Positions 7,665 through 34,994 of a DNA stretch of 35,011 nt are shown piece after piece (the first letter of the stretch is position 1; each line of letters starts with the position of its first letter). A program made the position numbers and the translations under genes. The notes beneath the pieces are model-generated. The model saw only the letters and a list, made by a program, of their open reading frames with translations. It was not told the origin of the DNA and did not search any database. The stretch is from a virus, in the IMG/VR virus record IMGVR_UViG_3300021956_000041, positions 1 through 35,011 of that record. One strand, written 5' to 3'.

Positions 7665-8155
7665 GCTCACGACTGTCCGCCATCCTCGCCGCGAATCCCA
7701 AGGCCGGCGCAAATCTGAAAAAGGCCGACGGCCTGTACCTGTACAACTCGGACGGCACCGGCACCGACAAGAGCGCCGGCTTGCTCCTCGAGGAGCTCGT
7801 CAAGGGCCTGTTCGGGTACACCGCCTCGAGCAACGCGAGCGGCAACACGACCATCACGCCAGGCGTCATCGCGCTCCGACACACCGAGGTCACGACCGTC
7901 ACTGGCGCTGGATCCACGACCCGCAAGTTTATCCTGGCGACCTCGAGCACGCCGGTCGCCGGCACCGTCGTCCTTCACCGCGTCAACTTGCCGGCCACCT
8001 CCGGCATCACCCTGCAATGGGTCAACGCGACGGCCGGCGGAGCGCTCCTGACCTCCTACGTCACCGACTCGAGCGGCGACGACCTGGTCGCCGAGTTCTA
8101 TTTCGACGGCACAGCCTGGCAGTTCCTCCGCTTCACCGTCCCCGCCAACGCCTGA
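7661..8155 (+). CDS. Beta-rich structural protein next to the fibre gene
   Basis: A 164-residue protein I do not recognise. The N-terminal part is helical (SRLSAILAANPKAGANLKKADG). The rest is rich in Thr, Ser, Gly and Val in short alternating strands, ending in AEFYFDGTAWQFLRFTVPA, a typical ending of small beta-sandwich fibre-associated proteins. The start at 7661 is chosen because it overlaps the previous stop by 4 bases; the frame is open further upstream but inside the adaptor gene. The position directly before the fibre gene suggests a fibre-anchoring or decorating role, which is inference. Confidence 0.72.
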   Translation: MSSRLSAILAANPKAGANLKKADGLYLYNSDGTGTDKSAGLLLEELVKGLFGYTASSNASGNTTITPGVIALRHTEVTTVTGAGSTTRKFILATSSTPVAGTVVLHRVNLPATSGITLQWVNATAGGALLTSYVTDSSGDDLVAEFYFDGTAWQFLRFTVPANA

Positions 8156-8157
8156 CC

Positions 8158-11100
8158 ATGAAGATCACCCGCTTCCTCTCCGCCCTGGTCCTCGCCGCGA
8201 CTGCATTTGCGCAGCAGCCCAAGAACGTCCAGAAAGTCTCCGACGGCACCAACGCGATCACCGAGTCCCTGGTCATCGGCGACGGCAAGGCCCTGTCGGC
8301 CTCCGGCACCGGCTCGATCACGGCCACCAGCGCGCCGGCCAGCGGCATCACCGGCATCGTTTCCGGCGCCCAGGGCGGCACGGGAGTCGCCAACACGGGC
8401 AAGACGCTCACCCTGGGCGGCAACGTCACCTTTTCCGGCGCTTATTCGACCACGCTGACCGTCACCGGCAACTCGAGCGTCACGCTTCCGACCTCCGGCA
8501 CCGTTGCGACCCTGGCCGGCGTCGAGACGCTGACCAATAAGAGCATCGACGCCTCGCAACTGACCGGCACGGTCTCCGCGCTCCGGATGCCGGCTTTTAC
8601 CGGCGACGTCTCGACCACGGCCGGATCGACCGCAACCACGCTGGCGACCGTAAACGCCAACGTCGGCACGTTTGGATCGGCCACCCAGGCCGGCACCTTC
8701 ACGGTCAACGGCAAGGGCCTGGTCACGGCCGCGTCCAACGTCACCATCACGCCGGCCGTCGGATCCATCACCGGCCTCGGCACTGGCGTCGCGACGTTCC
8801 TGGCGACGCCATCGAGCGCCAACCTGGCGGCGGCCGTCACCGACGAGACCGGCACCGGCTCGGTCGTCTTTTCCAATTCGCCGGCCCTGGTCACGCCAAA
8901 CCTAGGCACGCCGTCGGCCGTCACGCTGACAAACGCCACCGGCCTCCCGCTGACGACCGGCGTGACGGGCACCCTGGCCGTCGCGAACGGCGGCACGGGC
9001 GTCACGACCTCGACCGGATCTGGCAGCAACGTCCTTTCCAACTCGCCCACCCTGGTCACGCCCAACATCGGCGCGGCCACCGGCACGTCGGTCAACCTGT
9101 CCGGCGCCGGCACGTTCGGCGGAAACCTGACCGTCAACGGAACGGGGACGAGCAGCGTGTCGGGGAAGCTGGGCATTGGAGACACCAGCGGAGTCAGCAA
9201 ACTGGCGGTGCTTGATACGCTCCCTTACGCGACCGTTACAGGCTCATCTACTGGTCAATTCGGCTATCAGATTAAGGCAGGATTATCAGACTCCGCTGGA
9301 ACGCTTGTCGGTGGTTTGACTTACAACAGCGGCACCGGAGAGCAAAGATTGATTGGGGCGCAATCCTACGTTTTCCAAACATTATATTCGGGCGGGTCGG
9401 AGCGGATGCGATTGGATACCAGCGGAAACCTAGGAATCGGCACGACCAGCCCGCAGTCAAAGGTTGATGTGTACAATCCTTTGCTGGCCGCGACATCGAT
9501 CAGCAATAACAACTGCCATTTGGTTCTGTCTACTCAGAACAATGCTACGCTGCAACAGGCTGCGATATATTTCCAAGCGTTCAACACGACTGGCAATGCA
9601 AGCCCAGCCGCAATTTCAGCGATTAGTAGCGGCAACACGGCATCCAGTTTGGCGTTCTATACCAATGCCAACAATACATACACGAGCACACCTACTGAAC
9701 GTGGACGCTTCAGCAGCAACGGTAACTTACTTATTGGCACGACCTCTGATGGTTATGGTCGATTGTTGGTGCAAGACAACGTGGCATCTGGAGCCGCTGT
9801 CGCGGCGATCAAAAACGTAACCGATACTGGCGGCGACAATACGCGGTATGCTGGAATCAACTTCATCGTTGGTAGCGACGATTCGACGGCTTCAATTCGC
9901 ACCTATCGAACCAACAGCGCAACGGATTACTCCAATGCAATCGCTTTCCTGACCAAGGGTTCCGGTTCCGGTGCGACTACGCCGACCGAGCGGATGCGAA
10001 TCAATGAGAGTGGCAATCTCCTTCTCGGCACGACCACGGACAGCGGTCAGAAACTACAAGTTAATGGTACAAGTTCTTTTGATCGTTCGACCAGTGGGAC
10101 GGCAATGGCAATTCGCGCCAGTTCGATTACCGCTGGCCAACAGGTAAACTTGTTTTTCGGAAAGAACGATTCAGCGAAAAACGAGGCGACGATCATTTAT
10201 CACCACGCCGCCGACGGAAGCTCCAGCAATTACCTCGGCCTTGGATTTTTTGGTGCCGACGATCTGCTCAACGTGACGGCCTCCGGAGACGTCCTGGTCG
10301 GAGGAGGGACACTTAGCTCAGGAAACGGAAAGCTCCAACTCACCGACACCAGCGGCAGCAGCACCAAGGGCATCGGGTTCGGTACAGATACAAGCTTTTA
10401 TCGGGATGGAAACGGCCTAACGATGAGCAAGGCCAGCGCAAATTATCTCGCGTCTGGAATCTCGGTAATAAACACGGCGGGAAGTTCCTATGCGGCCGGA
10501 TTGACGGTCACGGGTTCGGCTTACGCTGCGGGCGACATTTCCGGTGCTTACTCAATGCTTCAAGCGGCGTATCAAACGCCCTTGGCTCTCTCTACTAACG
10601 CTGCGCAGCCAGTAAAAATTTTTACCAACAACACGCTGTCTGCGACTTTTGGCACCGATCAATCCGCGACTTTTTCGGGGCGCGCCACCGTAAACAGTAC
10701 TACCGCATCGACCAGCACCACGACCGGCGCCTTGGTTGTTAATGGCGGTATGGGCGTTGCCGGCTCGGTCAACATAGGCGGAAACACAACCACGACCGGA
10801 GTCCGCGTACTTAAAGGTACTTCAAGCAATGGCTATTCGGTAAACATCCCGCAAATCGCCGAGTTTTCCAAGTCGTCCGGAGACAGTGCGACGACCAGCA
10901 CCAGCGTCTCAATCGACATCACTTTCAGCCCGACGTATAGCTGGAAAAAGGGAACGCTGGAAGTAGTCGCTACTAATCAAAACAGTTACAGCGGCAGCGA
11001 AGGAGCGATTAACGAAATGATCCACTTCCAACAACTAACGACGCTCGGCGTCCGAAATTTCACCACGATCCGCACCAACTCCTCGGGCACGGCCATCACC

Positions 11101-11244
11101 CTCACGTATTCGTGCCCGTCCGACAACGTGCTTCGTGTTACGGCGACCTGTAACGACACCCAGGTCCCAGGGACAGTGCCGACGCATGAAGTGTGGCTCA
11201 GTGCCAAAGTCATTTCAGCTATAAATGTAGCCTCGATGCAGTAA
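8158..11244 (+). CDS. Large fibre-like protein with signal peptide and mosaic composition
   Basis: A 1028-residue protein with fibre-type repeats. Two copies of SNSPxLVTPNxG begin near residues 239 and 294, each near a GGTGV motif, a pattern common in phage tail fibres. Further on are GNLxIGTTS-type repeats (NLGIGTTSPQSKVDV, NLLIGTTSDG, NLLLGTTTDS) seen in trimeric fibre shafts, and a beta-rich C-terminal domain. Two oddities stand out. The N-terminus MKITRFLSALVLAATAFAQQ is a clear signal-peptide pattern, unusual for a virion protein. The DNA is GC-rich up to about 9150, then clearly AT-richer to about 10260 and again from about 10370 to 11030, which points to recombination. It probably binds the host surface. 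The start is the ATG at 8158 after TGACC; no upstream Shine-Dalgarno sequence. Confidence 0.8.
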   Translation: MKITRFLSALVLAATAFAQQPKNVQKVSDGTNAITESLVIGDGKALSASGTGSITATSAPASGITGIVSGAQGGTGVANTGKTLTLGGNVTFSGAYSTTLTVTGNSSVTLPTSGTVATLAGVETLTNKSIDASQLTGTVSALRMPAFTGDVSTTAGSTATTLATVNANVGTFGSATQAGTFTVNGKGLVTAASNVTITPAVGSITGLGTGVATFLATPSSANLAAAVTDETGTGSVVFSNSPALVTPNLGTPSAVTLTNATGLPLTTGVTGTLAVANGGTGVTTSTGSGSNVLSNSPTLVTPNIGAATGTSVNLSGAGTFGGNLTVNGTGTSSVSGKLGIGDTSGVSKLAVLDTLPYATVTGSSTGQFGYQIKAGLSDSAGTLVGGLTYNSGTGEQRLIGAQSYVFQTLYSGGSERMRLDTSGNLGIGTTSPQSKVDVYNPLLAATSISNNNCHLVLSTQNNATLQQAAIYFQAFNTTGNASPAAISAISSGNTASSLAFYTNANNTYTSTPTERGRFSSNGNLLIGTTSDGYGRLLVQDNVASGAAVAAIKNVTDTGGDNTRYAGINFIVGSDDSTASIRTYRTNSATDYSNAIAFLTKGSGSGATTPTERMRINESGNLLLGTTTDSGQKLQVNGTSSFDRSTSGTAMAIRASSITAGQQVNLFFGKNDSAKNEATIIYHHAADGSSSNYLGLGFFGADDLLNVTASGDVLVGGGTLSSGNGKLQLTDTSGSSTKGIGFGTDTSFYRDGNGLTMSKASANYLASGISVINTAGSSYAAGLTVTGSAYAAGDISGAYSMLQAAYQTPLALSTNAAQPVKIFTNNTLSATFGTDQSATFSGRATVNSTTASTSTTTGALVVNGGMGVAGSVNIGGNTTTTGVRVLKGTSSNGYSVNIPQIAEFSKSSGDSATTSTSVSIDITFSPTYSWKKGTLEVVATNQNSYSGSEGAINEMIHFQQLTTLGVRNFTTIRTNSSGTAITLTYSCPSDNVLRVTATCNDTQVPGTVPTHEVWLSAKVISAINVASMQ

Positions 11245-28943: not shown

Positions 28944-30031
28944 AGCTCCGCGCCTACCAGACAACCTCGGTCGAGTTCCTCCTGCCTCGCCGTCGCGGCT
29001 TCATCGTCGCGCCGGCCGGCAGTGGGAAAACGATCATCGCGGCCGCGGCGGCCTCTCAAGTCGCCGAGCCGTTCGGCCGAGTTGTCTGGCTGGCGAACAC
29101 CCGCGAGCAGTGTGAACAGGCCCGCGCGGCGTGCCTCCGCATGAAATGGCCGGATCCGGTCGCGCTCGACGTTCACTGCGTCGCCGCGCGGCCGGACGTC
29201 TCCGGCGCCGACCTGGTCATCATCGACGAGGCCCACCACACGCCCGCGCGTACTTGGTGGAACACCGTTGCCGAGGCCCAGGCCGTCGTCTGGGGATTCT
29301 CGGCGACGCCCTGGTCCGGAGACTGGGAACGCGACGCCATCCTCAAGGGATTTTTCGGCGAGGAAAACTTCCACGTCGTCCCGCGCGAGGAGGTCATGGC
29401 CGGCGGCTCGATCACCAAGGGCGTCGTCGTCATCCACGACCTCGACCAGGAGGGCGAATTTGACGACCAGATCGACGCCCTGACGGCCGAGGAGGTAAAG
29501 GTCCGCGCCAAGCGGCACCCGTACATTCCCCGCGACGAACACGAAAGGCGCGCGCGCTGGCAGTTCACGGCCGAGGCGATCCGCACCAACGTCGCGCGGA
29601 ACGGCCGGATCATCGAGCTCGCGACGCACCAGGAGGGCGCCGTCCTGGTCCTCGTCTCGACGGTCGATCACGGCAAGGAGCTCGAGGCGGCCATCCCTGG
29701 CTCGCTCCTGGTCCACGCCAAGGTCGGCAAAAAGAGACGCGCGGCCGCGATCGACGCCTTCCGCGACGGTTCGCTGCGCTGCATGATCGCGACGTCCCTG
29801 GCCGACGAGGGCCTGGACGTGCCCAGGGCCTCGGTCCTGGTCCTGGCATCCGGCGGCCGTTCGGCCGGCAAGCTCGAGCAACGCGCCGGCCGCGTAATGC
29901 GCCCCCACGCCGGCAAGGAGTTCGGCACCGTCCACGACTTCGCCGACCGCGGCGCCGGCCTGGCGCACAACCAATTCAAGGCCAGGGCGCGCACGTATAA
30001 GCGCCTCGGCTACACCATTAGCACAAAATAA
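28940..30031 (+). CDS. SF2 DNA helicase (DEAH-type)
   Basis: A 363-residue superfamily 2 helicase. Visible motifs: Q-like motif LRAYQTTSVEFL, I (Walker A) APAGSGKT (residues 24-31), II DEAH (96-99), III SATPW (121-125), then in the second lobe LLVHAKVGKKRRAAAIDAFRDGSLRCMIATSLADEGLDVP and VI QRAGRVMRP. It unwinds DNA during replication or recombination with the ATPase and SSB-like proteins. The GTG at 28940 overlaps the upstream stop. The last bases before 30031 turn AT-rich, marking the edge of an inserted segment. Confidence 0.9.
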   Translation: MKLRAYQTTSVEFLLPRRRGFIVAPAGSGKTIIAAAAASQVAEPFGRVVWLANTREQCEQARAACLRMKWPDPVALDVHCVAARPDVSGADLVIIDEAHHTPARTWWNTVAEAQAVVWGFSATPWSGDWERDAILKGFFGEENFHVVPREEVMAGGSITKGVVVIHDLDQEGEFDDQIDALTAEEVKVRAKRHPYIPRDEHERRARWQFTAEAIRTNVARNGRIIELATHQEGAVLVLVSTVDHGKELEAAIPGSLLVHAKVGKKRRAAAIDAFRDGSLRCMIATSLADEGLDVPRASVLVLASGGRSAGKLEQRAGRVMRPHAGKEFGTVHDFADRGAGLAHNQFKARARTYKRLGYTISTK

Positions 30032-30035
30032 TAAA

Positions 30036-30554
30036 ATGGCTAAAAGACCAATAGTATGGACTGGGCACGAAGACGCCGCATGGCTCGCTGAAAAACTGGG
30101 CGTAGTTGTAAAACAAATTTGCCGCCTAGAAAGAGCACTCGAGAAGGGCGAAGAAACAACGCAAGATTACCTAGATCGCGTTAGAGATATACGTATATAC
30201 ACTGGAATAGTAGTCGGCGGACTCTTTGCCGATTTGGATGACGCCCCAGAAATAAACGAGATTTTTCGGTGCGATGATAGCGAAGGCAAGTGGGTTTTGG
30301 ATTTGATATATAATTTAGGCAGAAATTCCAAATACTGGAAACTTACTTACCCTGAGCTGTTGAAGTTGCCCGAGTGGCAGCGAAAGCGCTTGGAGCTATT
30401 AAAAGCTAAACGATTTCGGTGCGAAGCGTGCGAAGATTCCGAATCTTCATTGCACGTTCACCATAAGAAATACGGTCACGGACTTCCGTGGGAGTTACCC
30501 AATAGCGCTTTCGAAGTGCTATGCGAAAAATGCCATCAATCGGAACACCAATGA
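30036..30554 (+). CDS. HNH endonuclease, AT-rich insert
   Basis: A 172-residue protein with a C-terminal HNH domain: C129-x2-C132, LHVHHKKY (H142, H143), PWELPNSAFEVLCEKCH (C163, C166, H167). This is the 'YPELLKLPEWQRKR...RCEAC...VHHxxY...PWExP...LCxxCH' type, a nicking or cutting nuclease with two structural zinc Cys pairs. The N-terminal 100 residues are unrelated to the nuclease and may bind DNA. The whole gene is visibly AT-richer than its neighbours and uses different codons (AAA, GAA, TTA), a sign of recent transfer. It overlaps the next gene by 4 bases. Free-standing homing-type or anti-competitor nuclease is likely. Confidence 0.85.
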   Translation: MAKRPIVWTGHEDAAWLAEKLGVVVKQICRLERALEKGEETTQDYLDRVRDIRIYTGIVVGGLFADLDDAPEINEIFRCDDSEGKWVLDLIYNLGRNSKYWKLTYPELLKLPEWQRKRLELLKAKRFRCEACEDSESSLHVHHKKYGHGLPWELPNSAFEVLCEKCHQSEHQ

Positions 30555-30856
30555 CCACCGCTGAATTTTTGGAGAAACACGACATCCCCATGCCCCTCAC
30601 CGAATACAAATTCCACCCGACGCGCCGCTGGCGTTTCGACTATGCCTGGCCGGCCTACCGGCTCGCCCTCGAGGTTGAGGGCGGCATCTGGGTCGGAGGC
30701 CGCCACAACAGCCCGACCGGCTTTTTCAAGGACCTCGAGAAGTACAACGCCGCGGCGATCCTCGGCTGGCGCATCCTCCGCGTCACGCCCAAGGCGATCA
30801 ACACGCTCGCCGTCGTCCACCTAGTCCGCGAGGCCATGAAAGGAGCAACCGCATGA
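30551..30856 (+). CDS. Small PD-(D/E)XK-like nuclease
   Basis: A 101-residue protein with a PD-(D/E)XK-like core: RRWRFDYAWPAYRLALEVEGG (D30, E41, E43), then KYNAAAILGWRILRVTP. The order Asp on strand 2, E-x-E on strand 3, then 'GWRILRVTP' on strand 4 is seen in small phage and bacterial nucleases of the Vsr/DUF559 type. An added ATG at 30521 exists, but the one at 30551 overlaps the HNH stop (ATGA) and gives a normal N-terminus. It could resolve DNA junctions, trim ends or act with the methyltransferase that follows. Activity is inferred. Confidence 0.78.
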   Translation: MTTAEFLEKHDIPMPLTEYKFHPTRRWRFDYAWPAYRLALEVEGGIWVGGRHNSPTGFFKDLEKYNAAAILGWRILRVTPKAINTLAVVHLVREAMKGATA

Positions 30857-31752
30857 AAGCCGTGGATCTCTTTGCCGGCCTTGGCGGATTCTCCGAGGGC
30901 GCGCGCATGGCCGGAGTCGAGGTTGCCTGGGCGGCAAACCACTGGCCCTCGGCCGTTGAAGTACACGCAAGCAACCACCCCGAGACCGCGCACGCTTGCC
31001 AAGACCTTCATCAAGCCGATTGGTCGGCCGTCCCGCGTCACAATCTGCTCCTCGCATCTCCGGCCTGTCAGGGCCACTCGAGGGCGCGCGGAGTGGATCG
31101 GCCGCACCACGACGCGTGCAGATCGACCGCGTGGGCCGTCGTCTCCTGCGCCGAGTACCACCGGCCGGAGTTTGCCGTCGTCGAAAACGTGCCGGAGTTT
31201 CTGAAATGGACGCTGTTCCCCGCCTGGGAGAACGCCATGCAGCGCCTCGGCTACACGCTGACGCCGCACGTCCTCGACTCCGCGGATCACGGCGTCCCGC
31301 AACACCGCCGCCGCGTGTTTGTCATTTGTACGCGAGGAAAACATACACTCCGGCTCAAATTACAAACACGCCCGCACGTCGCGGCCGAGACCATTCTCGA
31401 GGAGGGCGGAAAATGGTCCTCGATCGAGGACAAGGTTGAGGCAACCAAGGCGCGCGTCGCAGAGGGCCGCAAACAGCACGGCTCGCGTTTCCTCATGGCA
31501 TACTATGGCAACGAGAAGGGCGGCCGGTCTCTCCGCCGGCCGATCGGCACCGTCACGACGCGCGACCGTTACGCTCTGATCGACGGCGACCGGATGCGGA
31601 TGCTGACCGTCCAGGAGTACCGCCGCGCAATGGGATTCCCTGACGGCTACCGGCTGCCGGCCTCGAGCACCCTGGCGAAACATATGATCGGCAACGCCGT
31701 TTGCCCGCCGGTCGCCCGCGACATCATCACCGAGCTCAAGGAGGCCGCATGA
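30853..31752 (+). CDS. C5-cytosine DNA methyltransferase
   Basis: A 299-residue enzyme with all main motifs: I DLFAGLGGFSEG (residues 5-16), IV SPACQGHS (catalytic Cys72; Ala replaces the usual Pro before it), VI ENV (111-113), VIII QHRRRVF (150-156), a target-recognition stretch (about 175-235) and X GNAVCPP (280-286). It transfers a methyl group from SAM to C5 of cytosine at a specific site, possibly protecting phage DNA from host restriction. AAGGAG lies 8 bases before the ATG. It overlaps the nuclease stop by 4 bases. The target sequence is unknown. Confidence 0.92.
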   Translation: MKAVDLFAGLGGFSEGARMAGVEVAWAANHWPSAVEVHASNHPETAHACQDLHQADWSAVPRHNLLLASPACQGHSRARGVDRPHHDACRSTAWAVVSCAEYHRPEFAVVENVPEFLKWTLFPAWENAMQRLGYTLTPHVLDSADHGVPQHRRRVFVICTRGKHTLRLKLQTRPHVAAETILEEGGKWSSIEDKVEATKARVAEGRKQHGSRFLMAYYGNEKGGRSLRRPIGTVTTRDRYALIDGDRMRMLTVQEYRRAMGFPDGYRLPASSTLAKHMIGNAVCPPVARDIITELKEAA

Positions 31753-32122: not shown

Positions 32123-32295
32123 CGAAACTTCCCGAGTCCCTCCGGCGGATCCTGGACAAGCAGAAGCCCCAGGCCGCCGCACCGAAACCCGAGCCCCGCG
32201 GCGACATCACGACCATCTGGCGCGATGGCGAGATCTGGAAACTCGGTACCGACGGCAAGCTGCGCCAACTCAAACCCATTCCCCCTTTGCAATGA
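32119..32295 (+). CDS. Small protein before the prim-pol gene
   Basis: A 58-residue protein from a GTG at 32119, which overlaps the upstream stop. It reads TKLPESLRRILDKQKPQAAA, then PKPEPRGDITTIWRDGEIWK and LGTDGKLRQLK; the second half is a short beta meander with two Trp. Its stop overlaps the next ATG (AATGACT). It fills an otherwise empty 170-base gap in a fully packed operon and keeps the overlap pattern at both ends, so I consider it real. Unknown function. Confidence 0.5.
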   Translation: MTKLPESLRRILDKQKPQAAAPKPEPRGDITTIWRDGEIWKLGTDGKLRQLKPIPPLQ

Positions 32296-34385
32296 CTCCC
32301 ACACTTTCCACCGCGCTCGTCCTCCGCGCCTCCGGCTCGGCTTGCGTGCCGGTAAAACCTGACAAGCTCCCGCTCGTCTCCTGGAAACCCTACCAGCACC
32401 GGCTCCCCACCGAGGAGGAGCTCGGCAAGTGGTTCGCCAGGCCGACCGCGGGCATCGCCCTAATCGCAGGAGGCGAGGCCGGCGTCGAGTGCCTGGACTT
32501 CGACGAGAAGTACGCCCGCGGCATCCTTTCGCGATTCGCGAACCGCGCGGAGGAGGTCGGCCTGGATTACGTCCTCGGCCAACTGATACGCCAGCGCACG
32601 CCCTCCGGCGGGTACCACCTGGTCTGGCGCTGCACCGGCAAGCGCATCGGCAACCAGAAACTCGCCAGCCGGCCGGCAACGGCCGAGGAGAAGGCCGCCG
32701 ACCCGCACGCCCGCGAGCGCACCATGATCGAGACCCGCGGCGAGGGCGGGTATTTTCTGATCGCCCCGTCCGCCGGCTACGTGCTCGAGCAAGGCGACTG
32801 GTCCTCGATCCCGACCATCACCGAGGACGACCGCGACGCGATCCTGTCCCTGGCCCAGTCCTTTGACGAGCGCCAGGTCGAGGCCGTCGAGGTCGAGGCC
32901 CTTCCGGTCGAGTCCAGGCCAGCCGGGGCCGGCGAGCTCACGCCTGGCGACGACTATGATGCCAAGGCCGACGTGCCGGCGCTCCTCAAGGCCCACGGCT
33001 GGAAGCCCGCTGGCTCGAGCGGCAAGTACTGGACTCGCCCAGGCAAGGGCCGCGGCATCTCCGCCACCTGGGACATCGTCCCAGGCCGGTTTTACGTCTT
33101 CACCTCCTCGAGCGAATTTGAGCCCGCCCACGCGTACCGGCCCTGGCACGTTTACGCGGTCCTCGAGTGCGGCGGCGATTTTTCCCGCGCGGCTTCCGAG
33201 CTCCGCCGGCAAGGTTTCGGCGGATCGAGGCAGAAAGCCAGCCAGGTCCTTCCCTGGGACTTGGTCCCCGACGCCGAGATCCCCGCGGTCGAGCCTTCGC
33301 CGGACGACCCGCCAGGGATCGAGGGTTGCGACCCGCACGGCCAGGCGCCGACCACCGAGACCGAGGACGACCGGATCCGCCGGCTCCTCAAGGCCCGCGC
33401 GTTCGACCCCACCAAGGTCCCGCCGCCGGTCCGACCGATCTACTCCCTGGGCGGCGTCGTCATTTGCACGCCTGGCAACCTTACTGCCATCACGGCCCAG
33501 GCCAAGGTCGGCAAGTCGGCCCTGGTCTCCGCCCTGACGGCCTCGGCAATGGTCCCCGAGGACTCGGACGCCGACCTCCTCACGGCCGCCGGTTTCAACG
33601 CCGCCGGCAAGGCGCTCCTGTACTTTGACACCGAGCAAAGCCCCGACGACTTCTGGCACGCCGTCGCCAGGGCAAAGCGCCGCTCCGGCCTCGAGGTCCT
33701 GCCGGACTGGCTCCACGCGTACACGGTCGCCGACCTTCCCGCCCAGATCGCCCGCAAAGCCGTCGCCGTTGCAATGGCCGACGCCGCGGCGGCGCACGGC
33801 GGCATCCACTCGGTCATCATCGACGGCGTCGCCGACCTGGTCCTGGACGTCAACGACGCCGAGGAGTGCAACGGCATCGTCGCCGAGCTCCACGCCCAGG
33901 CCATCCGGTACGACTGCGCGATCCTTTGCGTCATCCACAAGAACCCAGGCACCGAGAAGGTCCGCGGTCACCTCGGCTCCCAGATCGAGCGCAAGGCCGA
34001 GACCAACCTGTCCCTCGAGAAGGAGGACGAGGTCACGGTCGTCTGGTCGGCCAAGCAACGCCGCGCCCCGATCGACAAGAAGACCGGCCCCCGCTTCCGC
34101 TGGGACGACGACCTCAAAATGCACGTCACGGCCGAGGCCGTCGCCAAGCCGGCCGCCCGCCTGGTCGAATTGGTCACCCTGGCGGAGGAGGTCCTCAAGC
34201 CTGGTCAAAGCGTTCCCTGGCGCGATCTGGTCACCGCTCTCAAGGCCGCCAGGAGCACGCCTGAGCGCTCCCCAGCCCAGTCCACGGTCGAGCGCTGGAT
34301 CGCTGAAATGAAGAAGGCCGAGGTCATCGTCACGGCTTTCGGCGCCTACCAACTGAACCCGAAACACCACCTTCCGGCAGCGTGA
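32292..34385 (+). CDS. Primase-polymerase/helicase fusion
   Basis: A 697-residue fusion. The N-terminus is a prim-pol domain: ECLDFDEK (D69, D71), TPSGGYHL (H109) and IETRGEGGYFLIAPS (residues 146-160). A middle domain (about 235-310: GKYWTRPGKGRGISATWD, YVFTSSSEFEPAHAYRPWHVY and ECGGDFSRAASEL) is typical for phage primases. A RecA/DnaB-like ATPase follows: Walker A AQAKVGKS (402-409), YFDTEQSPDD, Walker B VIIDG (508-512). A winged-helix tail is possible at the end (PAQSTVERWIAEMKKAEVIV). It would make primers and unwind DNA at the origin, which probably lies directly downstream. The start overlaps the previous stop. Confidence 0.88.
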   Translation: MTPTLSTALVLRASGSACVPVKPDKLPLVSWKPYQHRLPTEEELGKWFARPTAGIALIAGGEAGVECLDFDEKYARGILSRFANRAEEVGLDYVLGQLIRQRTPSGGYHLVWRCTGKRIGNQKLASRPATAEEKAADPHARERTMIETRGEGGYFLIAPSAGYVLEQGDWSSIPTITEDDRDAILSLAQSFDERQVEAVEVEALPVESRPAGAGELTPGDDYDAKADVPALLKAHGWKPAGSSGKYWTRPGKGRGISATWDIVPGRFYVFTSSSEFEPAHAYRPWHVYAVLECGGDFSRAASELRRQGFGGSRQKASQVLPWDLVPDAEIPAVEPSPDDPPGIEGCDPHGQAPTTETEDDRIRRLLKARAFDPTKVPPPVRPIYSLGGVVICTPGNLTAITAQAKVGKSALVSALTASAMVPEDSDADLLTAAGFNAAGKALLYFDTEQSPDDFWHAVARAKRRSGLEVLPDWLHAYTVADLPAQIARKAVAVAMADAAAAHGGIHSVIIDGVADLVLDVNDAEECNGIVAELHAQAIRYDCAILCVIHKNPGTEKVRGHLGSQIERKAETNLSLEKEDEVTVVWSAKQRRAPIDKKTGPRFRWDDDLKMHVTAEAVAKPAARLVELVTLAEEVLKPGQSVPWRDLVTALKAARSTPERSPAQSTVERWIAEMKKAEVIVTAFGAYQLNPKHHLPAA

Positions 34386-34513
34386 ACCCTCACACCCTCA
34401 CCCAACCCTCATTTCACCCTCACGAGGGTCAACCCTCACACCCTCACCAGGCCGTATATATATACGGCCTGAGGTGAGGGTAACCCGATGAAGGTTTCGA
34501 CCCTCAACCCTCA
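34386..34513 (+). repeat. ACCCTCA iteron array, probable replication origin
   Basis: Eight direct copies of ACCCTCA start at 34386, 34394, 34405, 34416, 34432, 34440, 34500 and 34507. One inverted copy is at 34475-34481, and a second inverted copy with one change is at 34423-34429. Several are followed by C, two by TTT. The array begins right after the prim-pol/helicase stop and contains a long AT-centred palindrome. Direct repeats, an AT-rich centre and replication genes next to it are the usual make-up of an iteron origin. Confidence 0.72.
34440..34481 (+). other. Perfect 24-bp palindrome flanked by inverted iterons
   Basis: The stretch 34448-34471 is a perfect palindrome: arm CAGGCCGTATAT and its complement, with an alternating TA centre. 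The iteron ACCCTCAC (34440-34447) and inverted copy GTGAGGGT (34474-34481) extend the stem by 8 pairs with a 2-base bulge (34472-34473). It could extrude as a 20-bp cruciform or fold in single-stranded DNA as a primase or initiator site. A transcription terminator is an alternative, but no T-run follows. Confidence 0.75.
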
Positions 34514-34523
34514 TTTGCTCAAA

Positions 34524-34994
34524 ATGCCAAGCTCCCCCCTTAAACCCTGCGCGCACCCTGGCTGCCGCAACCTGGTCCAGGCCGGCAAGTGCGACCAGCA
34601 CCGCCGCACCAACGCCCGAGCCTGGGACGCCACCGTCCGCCAGGCCGACCCATCCCTGGCCGAGGCCGCCAGGATCCGCGGCACGCCAGCCTGGAAACAA
34701 ACCCGAGCCCTCCACCGCGACCTCGAGCCCTTCTGTCGCGATCCGTTCAACCGTCACGGCAAGCTCCCCCCTCCCGCCCGCGAGTCCCACCACATCCGGC
34801 CCCTCGCTACCAACCCCGAGCTCGCCTTCGACCTGGCCAACCTGGCCGGCCTTTGCGTCCCGTGCCACCGCCAGGTCGAGGCCCTCGAGGCCGCCGGCCA
34901 GCCGACCGTCCACCTGTTCGCCGGAGGACCCCGCCGCCTGGGCGAAACGCGCGTGGGGAATACCACCCACCCCCAGGGGGGCCAAAAAGTCTAG
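34524..34994 (+). CDS. HNH endonuclease of the packaging module
   Basis: A 156-residue protein. The N-terminal zinc-ribbon-like part C9-x4-C14...C23-x2-H26 is followed by RGTPAWKQTRALHRDLEPFC, then the HNH core SHHIRPL (H89, H90), N106, and CVPCH (C111, C114, H115). HNH proteins encoded just before TerS assist TerL in cutting at cos in HK97-like phages. If the molecule is circular, this gene is 60 bases upstream of TerS. The ATG at 34488 is also possible, but the extra 12 residues would be coded partly by the iterons; I favour 34524. The first zinc pair of the HNH core keeps only one Cys. Confidence 0.82.
   Translation: MPSSPLKPCAHPGCRNLVQAGKCDQHRRTNARAWDATVRQADPSLAEAARIRGTPAWKQTRALHRDLEPFCRDPFNRHGKLPPPARESHHIRPLATNPELAFDLANLAGLCVPCHRQVEALEAAGQPTVHLFAGGPRRLGETRVGNTTHPQGGQKV

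What the first reader, a model, noticed from the sequence alone, without database searches (positions are those of the whole stretch)
34386..34513. Iteron array with a 24-bp palindrome directly behind the prim-pol/helicase gene
Eight direct ACCCTCA copies plus an inverted copy surround a perfect AT-centred palindrome whose stem is lengthened by paired iterons. It is the only such array in the window and abuts the replication gene. Iterons usually bind a dedicated initiator; here none is obvious, so the prim-pol fusion or a small neighbour may recognise them. The start of the terminal HNH gene at 34488 would even be coded by iterons.
Basis: partly seen in the sequence, partly recalled or inferred. 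Interest (0 to 1): 0.75.

Follow-up and report, generated by a model that had tools for sequence, protein, structure and literature searches.

The report
Phage replication origin read by helicase
A cluster of short repeats around a TA-centred mirror sequence, right behind a phage's replication gene, is very probably where its DNA copying starts; across related phages and bacteria the repeat "word" keeps changing while the spacing stays fixed, apparently because the tail of the replication protein reads the word.

Summary
In detail: eight direct and one inverted ACCCTCA plus a perfect 24-bp palindrome start at the base after the stop codon of the prim-pol/helicase gene, and nothing similar exists elsewhere in the 35-kb record. 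It is not an isolated curiosity. The close phage relatives carry the same element directly 3' of this gene, or 8-15 kb away and inverted in two prophages, and it also follows the homologous helicase in Verrucomicrobiota genomes. The repeat word differs between lineages (more than 15 words), all copies changing together, while the layout stays nearly fixed (centres about -70, -62, -51, -40, -24, -16, dyad, +18 inverted) and the dyad stem is kept by paired changes. The helicase is the only gene shared by all tested carriers. Its C-terminal domain is modelled as a winged helix, and its recognition helix changes with the repeat word. CTD-less helicase relatives lack the array. Best explanation: a replication origin bound through the helicase's own C-terminal domain, in the manner of SaPI Rep but with a RepA/RecA-type (AAA_25) helicase and a PrimPol. 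Initiation and binding are inferred; no replication or binding data were available. New variant of a known kind.

The parts
32292..34385 (+). Prim-Pol / AAA_25 (RepA-RecA-like) helicase / C-terminal winged-helix fusion, 697 aa; proposed initiator
   Evidence: Pfam Prim-Pol 5.7e-15 and AAA_25 2.2e-11; AlphaFold model; Foldseek match to pRN1 ORF904 primase 4.5e-09
34155..34355 (+). C-terminal winged helix-turn-helix domain (about residues 622-688); proposed iteron reader
   Evidence: model with block pLDDT 91-93 over the domain; VIA-align best matches are winged-helix proteins, Z up to 7.9
34278..34316 (+). predicted recognition helix (residues 663-675, QSTVERWIAEMKK)
   Evidence: the equivalent column is the one that best tracks iteron identity in Verrucomicrobiaceae copies
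34386..34392 (+). iteron 1 ACCCTCA (centre -70)
34394..34400 (+). iteron 2 (centre -62)
34405..34411 (+). iteron 3 (centre -51)
34416..34422 (+). iteron 4 (centre -40)
34423..34429 (-). inverted iteron, one mismatch (centre -33)
34432..34438 (+). iteron 5 (centre -24)
34440..34446 (+). iteron 6 (centre -16)
34448..34471 (.). 24-bp perfect dyad, GC stem and (TA)n core; proposed opening / helicase-loading point
   Evidence: stem kept by paired changes across relatives
34475..34481 (-). inverted iteron 7 (centre +18)
34489..34495 (-). inverted iteron, one mismatch (centre +32)
34500..34506 (+). iteron 8 (centre +43)
34507..34513 (+). iteron 9 (centre +50)

Best explanation
34386-34513 is the replication origin of this phage. 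The initiator is the neighbouring prim-pol/helicase itself. Its C-terminal winged-helix domain binds the ACCCTCA iterons, whose fixed spacing (including 11-bp, one-turn steps) places several copies of the protein on one face of the DNA and an opposing copy across the dyad. This brings RepA-type helicase domains to the GC-stem/(TA)n dyad, which opens or extrudes, the helicase ring loads there, and the fused Prim-Pol domain primes. Shown: the array, its fixed layout with changing word, paired changes in the stem, linkage to CTD-bearing helicases, and recognition-helix co-variation. Inferred: binding, opening at the dyad, helicase loading, initiation. Iteron word and recognition helix probably evolve together, giving each lineage a private origin specificity.
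For: (1) Twelve of the 14 prim-pol/helicase relatives (44-78% identical, L002-L012 and L015; several near-duplicates) carry iterons plus a palindrome directly 3' of the gene. (2) A motif-blind layout test finds 6-7 of 7 slots only in array loci; one Markov control for each of 152 loci never exceeded 4. (3) Layout is almost the same for ACCCTCA (window, L002), AGTCTCA/C (phages) and ACTGACA/ACGGACA (Opitutaceae prophage L014 and its relative L013), in the latter two inverted and 8-15 kb from the helicase. (4) The dyad stem keeps pairing through changes on both sides. (5) Of eleven window genes tested, only the prim-pol/helicase is shared by all 16 phage loci compared. (6) The array goes with AAA_25 helicase plus CTD: it persists where Prim-Pol is replaced by BT4734-like_N (L022) or where the helicase has no fused primase (L095-L098, with a separate Toprim gene in L098); 64 CTD-less homologues (~280-300 aa) show none at 6/7. 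(7) CTD modelled as winged helix. (8) In 10 Verrucomicrobiaceae copies with 6 iteron words, the best co-varying CTD column lies in the recognition helix (ARI 0.61, next 0.37); a triplet there is 93% identical within the same word, 34% between, permutation p = 0.00025. Phages agree: ACCCTCA with TVERWI, AGTCTCA with T(V/T)ARWI, AGTCTCC with TVGKWI. (9) Published precedent: SaPI Rep and Cch2 bind iterons directly downstream of their own gene through the C-terminal domain (PMC7581432).
Against: No replication, binding or read-depth data. GC skew is uninformative. Bacteroidota homologues with a CTD show no comparable array nearby. The co-variation rests on 10 related copies; the triplet was chosen after seeing the data, and the rest of the CTD also shows some relatedness signal (p = 0.02). 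In phages the array often lies near terminase genes. The core is only about 10 bp of TA, shorter than a classical unwinding element, and no DnaA box was found in the window.
Confidence: 0.8

Rival explanations
1. Packaging initiation site (cos/pac) recognised by the small terminase or the HNH protein; window order is array-HNH-(record end), record start-TerS-TerL.
For: In the window, L007, L009 and L022 a terminase gene lies within about 0.5-3.5 kb on the array side (window assuming a circular map), and in prophage record L014 (L013 by resemblance) the array is nearer to the terminase than to the helicase.
Against: The layout is constant although terminases differ: TerL_ATPase/TerL_nuclease in the window, GpA in L007/L009/L022, Terminase_6C in L014. 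Chromosomal copies (L095, L096, L098, L101) keep it beside ordinary chromosomal genes (in L101 FAD-halogenase and 3-keto-disaccharide hydrolase genes) with no terminase recognised among the ORFs scanned. The HNH gene is shared only with L002. Iteron word tracks the helicase CTD.
Confidence: 0.07
2. Operator or terminator that regulates the replication gene or the next gene.
For: Intergenic position between two genes; wHTH domains are common in repressors; a strong hairpin can form.
Against: No sigma-70-like promoter and no intrinsic terminator in 34200-34700 (Verrucomicrobiota promoters may differ). The element is 3' of the gene, and in L013/L014 it is 8-15 kb away and inverted. A dozen fixed sites and a TA dyad exceed a usual operator. 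Downstream genes differ between relatives.
Confidence: 0.07
3. Partition (centromere) or site-specific resolution site.
For: Iteron arrays also serve as centromeres; the plasmid partition protein TubR is among the winged-helix matches.
Against: The only gene common to the compared phage carriers is a helicase; no partition ATPase or resolvase was looked for systematically.
Confidence: 0.03
4. Hairpin nick site of a rolling-circle replicon, or a telomere-resolvase target.
For: Perfect palindrome with alternating TA centre.
Against: No ResT/TelK catalytic domain in the record. Sizeable tandem iteron sets with fixed spacing are not expected for either. A HUH nickase was not searched for specifically.
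Confidence: 0.03

Closest known systems
SaPI Rep / SCCmec Cch2 self-loading initiator helicases and their origins (PMC7581432)
   Same: Helicase whose C-terminal domain binds short iterons in an origin directly downstream of its own gene; primase encoded with or near it.
   Different: SaPIbov1 Rep/Cch carry DUF927 and SaPI5 Rep/Cch2 Primase_Cterm/D5-type helicases; here the motor is AAA_25 (RepA/RecA-like). Here 7-bp words change between lineages at constant layout around a compensated GC-stem/(TA)n dyad. Cch2 has three 5-nt iterons.
pRN1 ORF904 replicon (PMC4234260)
   Same: Prim-Pol, helicase and C-terminal winged helix in one protein; origin just 3' of the gene with a stem conserved in structure but not in sequence.
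   Different: SF3 helicase; the pRN1 origin is a 100-nt stem-loop without iterons.
IncQ/RSF1010 oriV
   Same: RepA-family hexameric helicase at an iteron origin (PMC4234260; PMC8965321).
   Different: Iterons there are read by a separate RepC; here the only shared gene is the helicase.
PrimPol-PV1 families fused to RepA helicases, with C-terminal winged helix (PMC5862659)
   Same: Domain combination predicted; origin recognition by the winged helix was suggested there for PolpTN2.
   Different: The passages read name no origin, iteron or co-varying site.

Membership tests
Iteron-type replication origin | Clustered short direct repeats beside the initiator gene | tested here: met
Iteron-type replication origin | Repeats conserved among relatives as protein sites with phased spacing | tested here: met
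Iteron-type replication origin | AT-rich unwinding region | tested here: inconclusive
   only a ~10-bp (TA)n core inside the dyad
Iteron-type replication origin | Supports autonomous replication | not testable with these tools
   needs an experiment
SaPI Rep / Cch2 self-loading helicase system | Origin directly downstream of the helicase gene | tested here: met
   window and most relatives; exceptions L013, L014, L020, L022
SaPI Rep / Cch2 self-loading helicase system | C-terminal DNA-binding domain that reads the iterons | tested here: inconclusive
   winged-helix model and co-variation; binding not tested
SaPI Rep / Cch2 self-loading helicase system | DUF927 or D5/Primase_Cterm helicase core | tested here: not met
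   Pfam gives Prim-Pol and AAA_25 only
pRN1-type PrimPol replicon | Prim-Pol domain related to ORF904 | tested here: met
   Foldseek 1rni 7.1e-09, 9aam 4.5e-09; Pfam PF09250
pRN1-type PrimPol replicon | SF3 helicase domain | tested here: not met
   AAA_25 instead
IncQ/RSF1010 oriV | Separate RepC iteron-binding protein | tested here: inconclusive
   No other gene shared by all carriers among those compared; RepC was not searched for by profile
Telomere-resolvase (linear plasmid phage) telomere | Protelomerase gene | tested here: not met
   PF16684 absent from the record

The most novel reading that the evidence does not exclude
A family of phage and chromosomal replication modules in Verrucomicrobiota in which a RepA-type helicase carries a winged-helix reader and its origin is a rigid scaffold of slots whose 7-bp word is freely swapped together with two or three residues of the recognition helix, giving a readable protein-DNA specificity code that creates mutually exclusive replicons. 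Some copies have become fixed in chromosomes as origin-like islands without phage genes.
Probability: 0.5. Interest if true: 0.78.

Novelty: new variant of a known kind. Interest (0 to 1): 0.64.

Why it matters
It turns one repeat cluster into a testable origin family: same geometry, more than fifteen words, and a named protein domain and helix positions that should decide the word. That allows origin specificity of a phage initiator to be predicted from sequence, gives a way to find origins in uncultured Verrucomicrobiota phages, and offers a compact system (helicase, primase and origin reader in one protein) for studying how a RepA-type ring is loaded without a separate initiator.

Tried and rejected
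GC skew: uniform sign, no information. Sigma-70 promoter / intrinsic terminator scan and Rfam: nothing. DnaA boxes and protelomerase: none. Pfam/PDB sequence search with the CTD alone: nothing significant. HNH start at 34488: doubted from L002. Exact palindrome search in viral contigs found only L002's contig, because stem sequence is not conserved. My first layout for L013/L014 (array missing) was wrong: it lies elsewhere in those records. Arthrobacter PrimPol-SF3 phages do not share this element, though Peas has its own repeats. Foldseek with the CTD alone gave no match below E 0.001; the winged-helix call rests on the model and on middling VIA-align Z scores. Bacteroidales TTAGGA repeats upstream of helicase genes do not match this layout with a dyad. 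Paper searches found no description of this origin family, but the library lacks most subscription journals.

Full report
Observation. The array is real and unique in the record. Nine exact ACCCTCA copies (8 direct, 1 inverted) lie in 128 bp starting at the base after the stop codon of the 697-aa prim-pol/helicase gene, around a perfect 24-bp palindrome at 34448-34471. No other 7-mer clusters like this in the window (next best 5 per 200 bp), and shuffled windows reach 3-5. GC skew has one sign throughout and cannot place an origin.

The gene. Pfam finds Prim-Pol (13-161) and AAA_25 (376-550). An AlphaFold model from 15 homologues shows a further domain at 622-688 (H-H-H-wing) with good local confidence; modelled alone with 28 homologues its core blocks have pLDDT 91-93 and the order H, short strand, H, H, two-strand wing. 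VIA-align matches are winged-helix proteins, Z up to 7.9, which shows only the common fold. The primase part matches pRN1 ORF904.

Relatives. A protein search of IMG/VR found 14 loci. Reading the DNA behind the gene showed the same architecture in all but two of them, with different words: ACCCTCA (L002, L007), AGTCTCA (L004, L005, L009, L011), AGTCTCC (L003, L008, L010, L012; mixed in L006) and ACCCCGT (L015). Some of these loci are near-duplicates. A wider search with the alignment added viral loci and Verrucomicrobiota genomes. There the element again follows the helicase gene, with ACCGTCA, CCGTGTC, AGGGCCA, GGTATCA, AGGATCA, AGGGTCA, GGGTTCA, GCGGGAA, CGGGACA and others, and the dyad core is usually a TATATA-like stretch. 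In some copies the stem is built of inverted iterons (54-bp perfect palindrome in L095). In L022 and L020 the array lies one or two genes further on. The two apparent exceptions, prophage records L013 and L014, carry the array 8-15 kb from the helicase and in the opposite orientation.

Geometry. Measured from the dyad centre, iteron centres sit at -70/-69, -62, -51, -40, -24, -16 and +18 (inverted) in the window and L002. The AGTCTCM phages share most of these slots. Read from the other strand, L144 (L014 record; -69, -62, -51, -40, -24, -16, +18) and L146 (L013 record) give nearly the same numbers. A motif-blind test for any 6-mer filling these slots scored 6-7 of 7 in array loci only; 152 Markov controls, one per locus, never exceeded 4. 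The dyad's inner pairs differ between relatives but remain complementary. Conserved spacing with exchanged sequence argues for a protein-DNA machine and against mere recent descent.

Which protein reads it. Of the window genes compared, only the prim-pol/helicase occurs in all 16 phage loci; the small neighbours, the HNH and the methyltransferase do not. The fused primase is not the common element: L022 has BT4734-like_N in place of Prim-Pol, and the chromosomal Verrucomicrobiaceae helicases have no fused primase, with a Toprim gene beside the one in L098. The common elements are the AAA_25 helicase and the C-terminal domain. Sixty-four homologues of ~280-300 aa that end before this domain show no array at 6/7. 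In ten Verrucomicrobiaceae copies with six words, the CTD column that best follows the word is in the recognition helix (ARI 0.61; next 0.37): GGGTCA with SEST, GGTTCA with S[EA]SS, GGATCA in three genomes with EPTAKRRIKLW, GGCTCA with SPAT, GGGCCA with AERS, GTATCA with SVAT. Two copies in one genome (for example G010: GTATCA and GGATCA) have different helices. The set is small and related, and the triplet was picked after inspection, so this is strong support rather than proof.

What it does. A helicase whose own DNA-binding tail recognises a nearby iteron set with a TA dyad is best read as a self-loading initiator and its origin. SaPI Rep and Cch2 do this, with the origin downstream of the gene and recognition by the C-terminal domain (PMC7581432), and pRN1 has its essential stem-loop origin just 3' of a PrimPol-helicase-winged-helix gene (PMC4234260). 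A packaging site is less likely because the layout is indifferent to terminase type and persists beside chromosomal genes without a recognised terminase. An operator or terminator is unlikely from position, mobility and scans. No replication experiment could be run, so origin function is inferred.

Novelty. The kind (iteron origin read by its helicase's C-terminal domain) is known. New here, as far as the searched papers show, is a family built on an AAA_25/RepA-type helicase with exchangeable words on a fixed scaffold and a recognition helix that follows them. The library searched is incomplete.

HNH start. In L002 the ATG equivalent to 34488 opens a nine-codon frame that stops just before the HNH ATG. 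The iterons at 34500-34513 are therefore probably not coding, although in the window the frame is open.

Noticed in passing
L151:7560-7810 (Arthrobacter phage Peas, MH834623.1): A different repeat set (AGTGACA, seven copies, in inverted pairs around hairpins) lies 3' of a PrimPol-SF3 helicase gene, overlapping annotated gene 61; possibly a parallel origin.
   Followed up: partly
L098:8994-9430: The array occurs twice in tandem; between the copies is a fragment that still encodes the recognition helix (RTAQRLIRQWASSGLIKL), as if reader and site were duplicated as a unit.
   Followed up: partly
L095, L096, L098, L101 around 7.7-9.2 kb: Chromosomal helicase-array island in Verrucomicrobiaceae with ordinary metabolic neighbours and no phage gene recognised; a Toprim primase gene precedes the helicase in L098. 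Possible domesticated replicon.
   Followed up: partly
L160, L161, L162, L159: Truncated copies of the helicase C-terminal end with their own arrays; in three genomes (L160-L162) they are second copies whose word differs from that of the full copy.
   Followed up: partly
L017:10530-10680: Seven TGGACAA repeats about 3.5 kb from the helicase gene, without a clear TA dyad.
   Followed up: no
L128:7715-7800 and L135:7690-7790: TTAGGA repeats directly upstream of Bacteroidales AAA_25 helicase genes.
   Followed up: no
window 30036-31752: HNH gene and C-5 methyltransferase in a stretch that includes a GC dip (0.54 in 30001-31000); both are absent from the relatives compared, suggesting a recent insertion.
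   Followed up: partly
window 9001-11000: GC falls to 0.54-0.55 within the 1075-aa ORF at 8017-11244.
   Followed up: no
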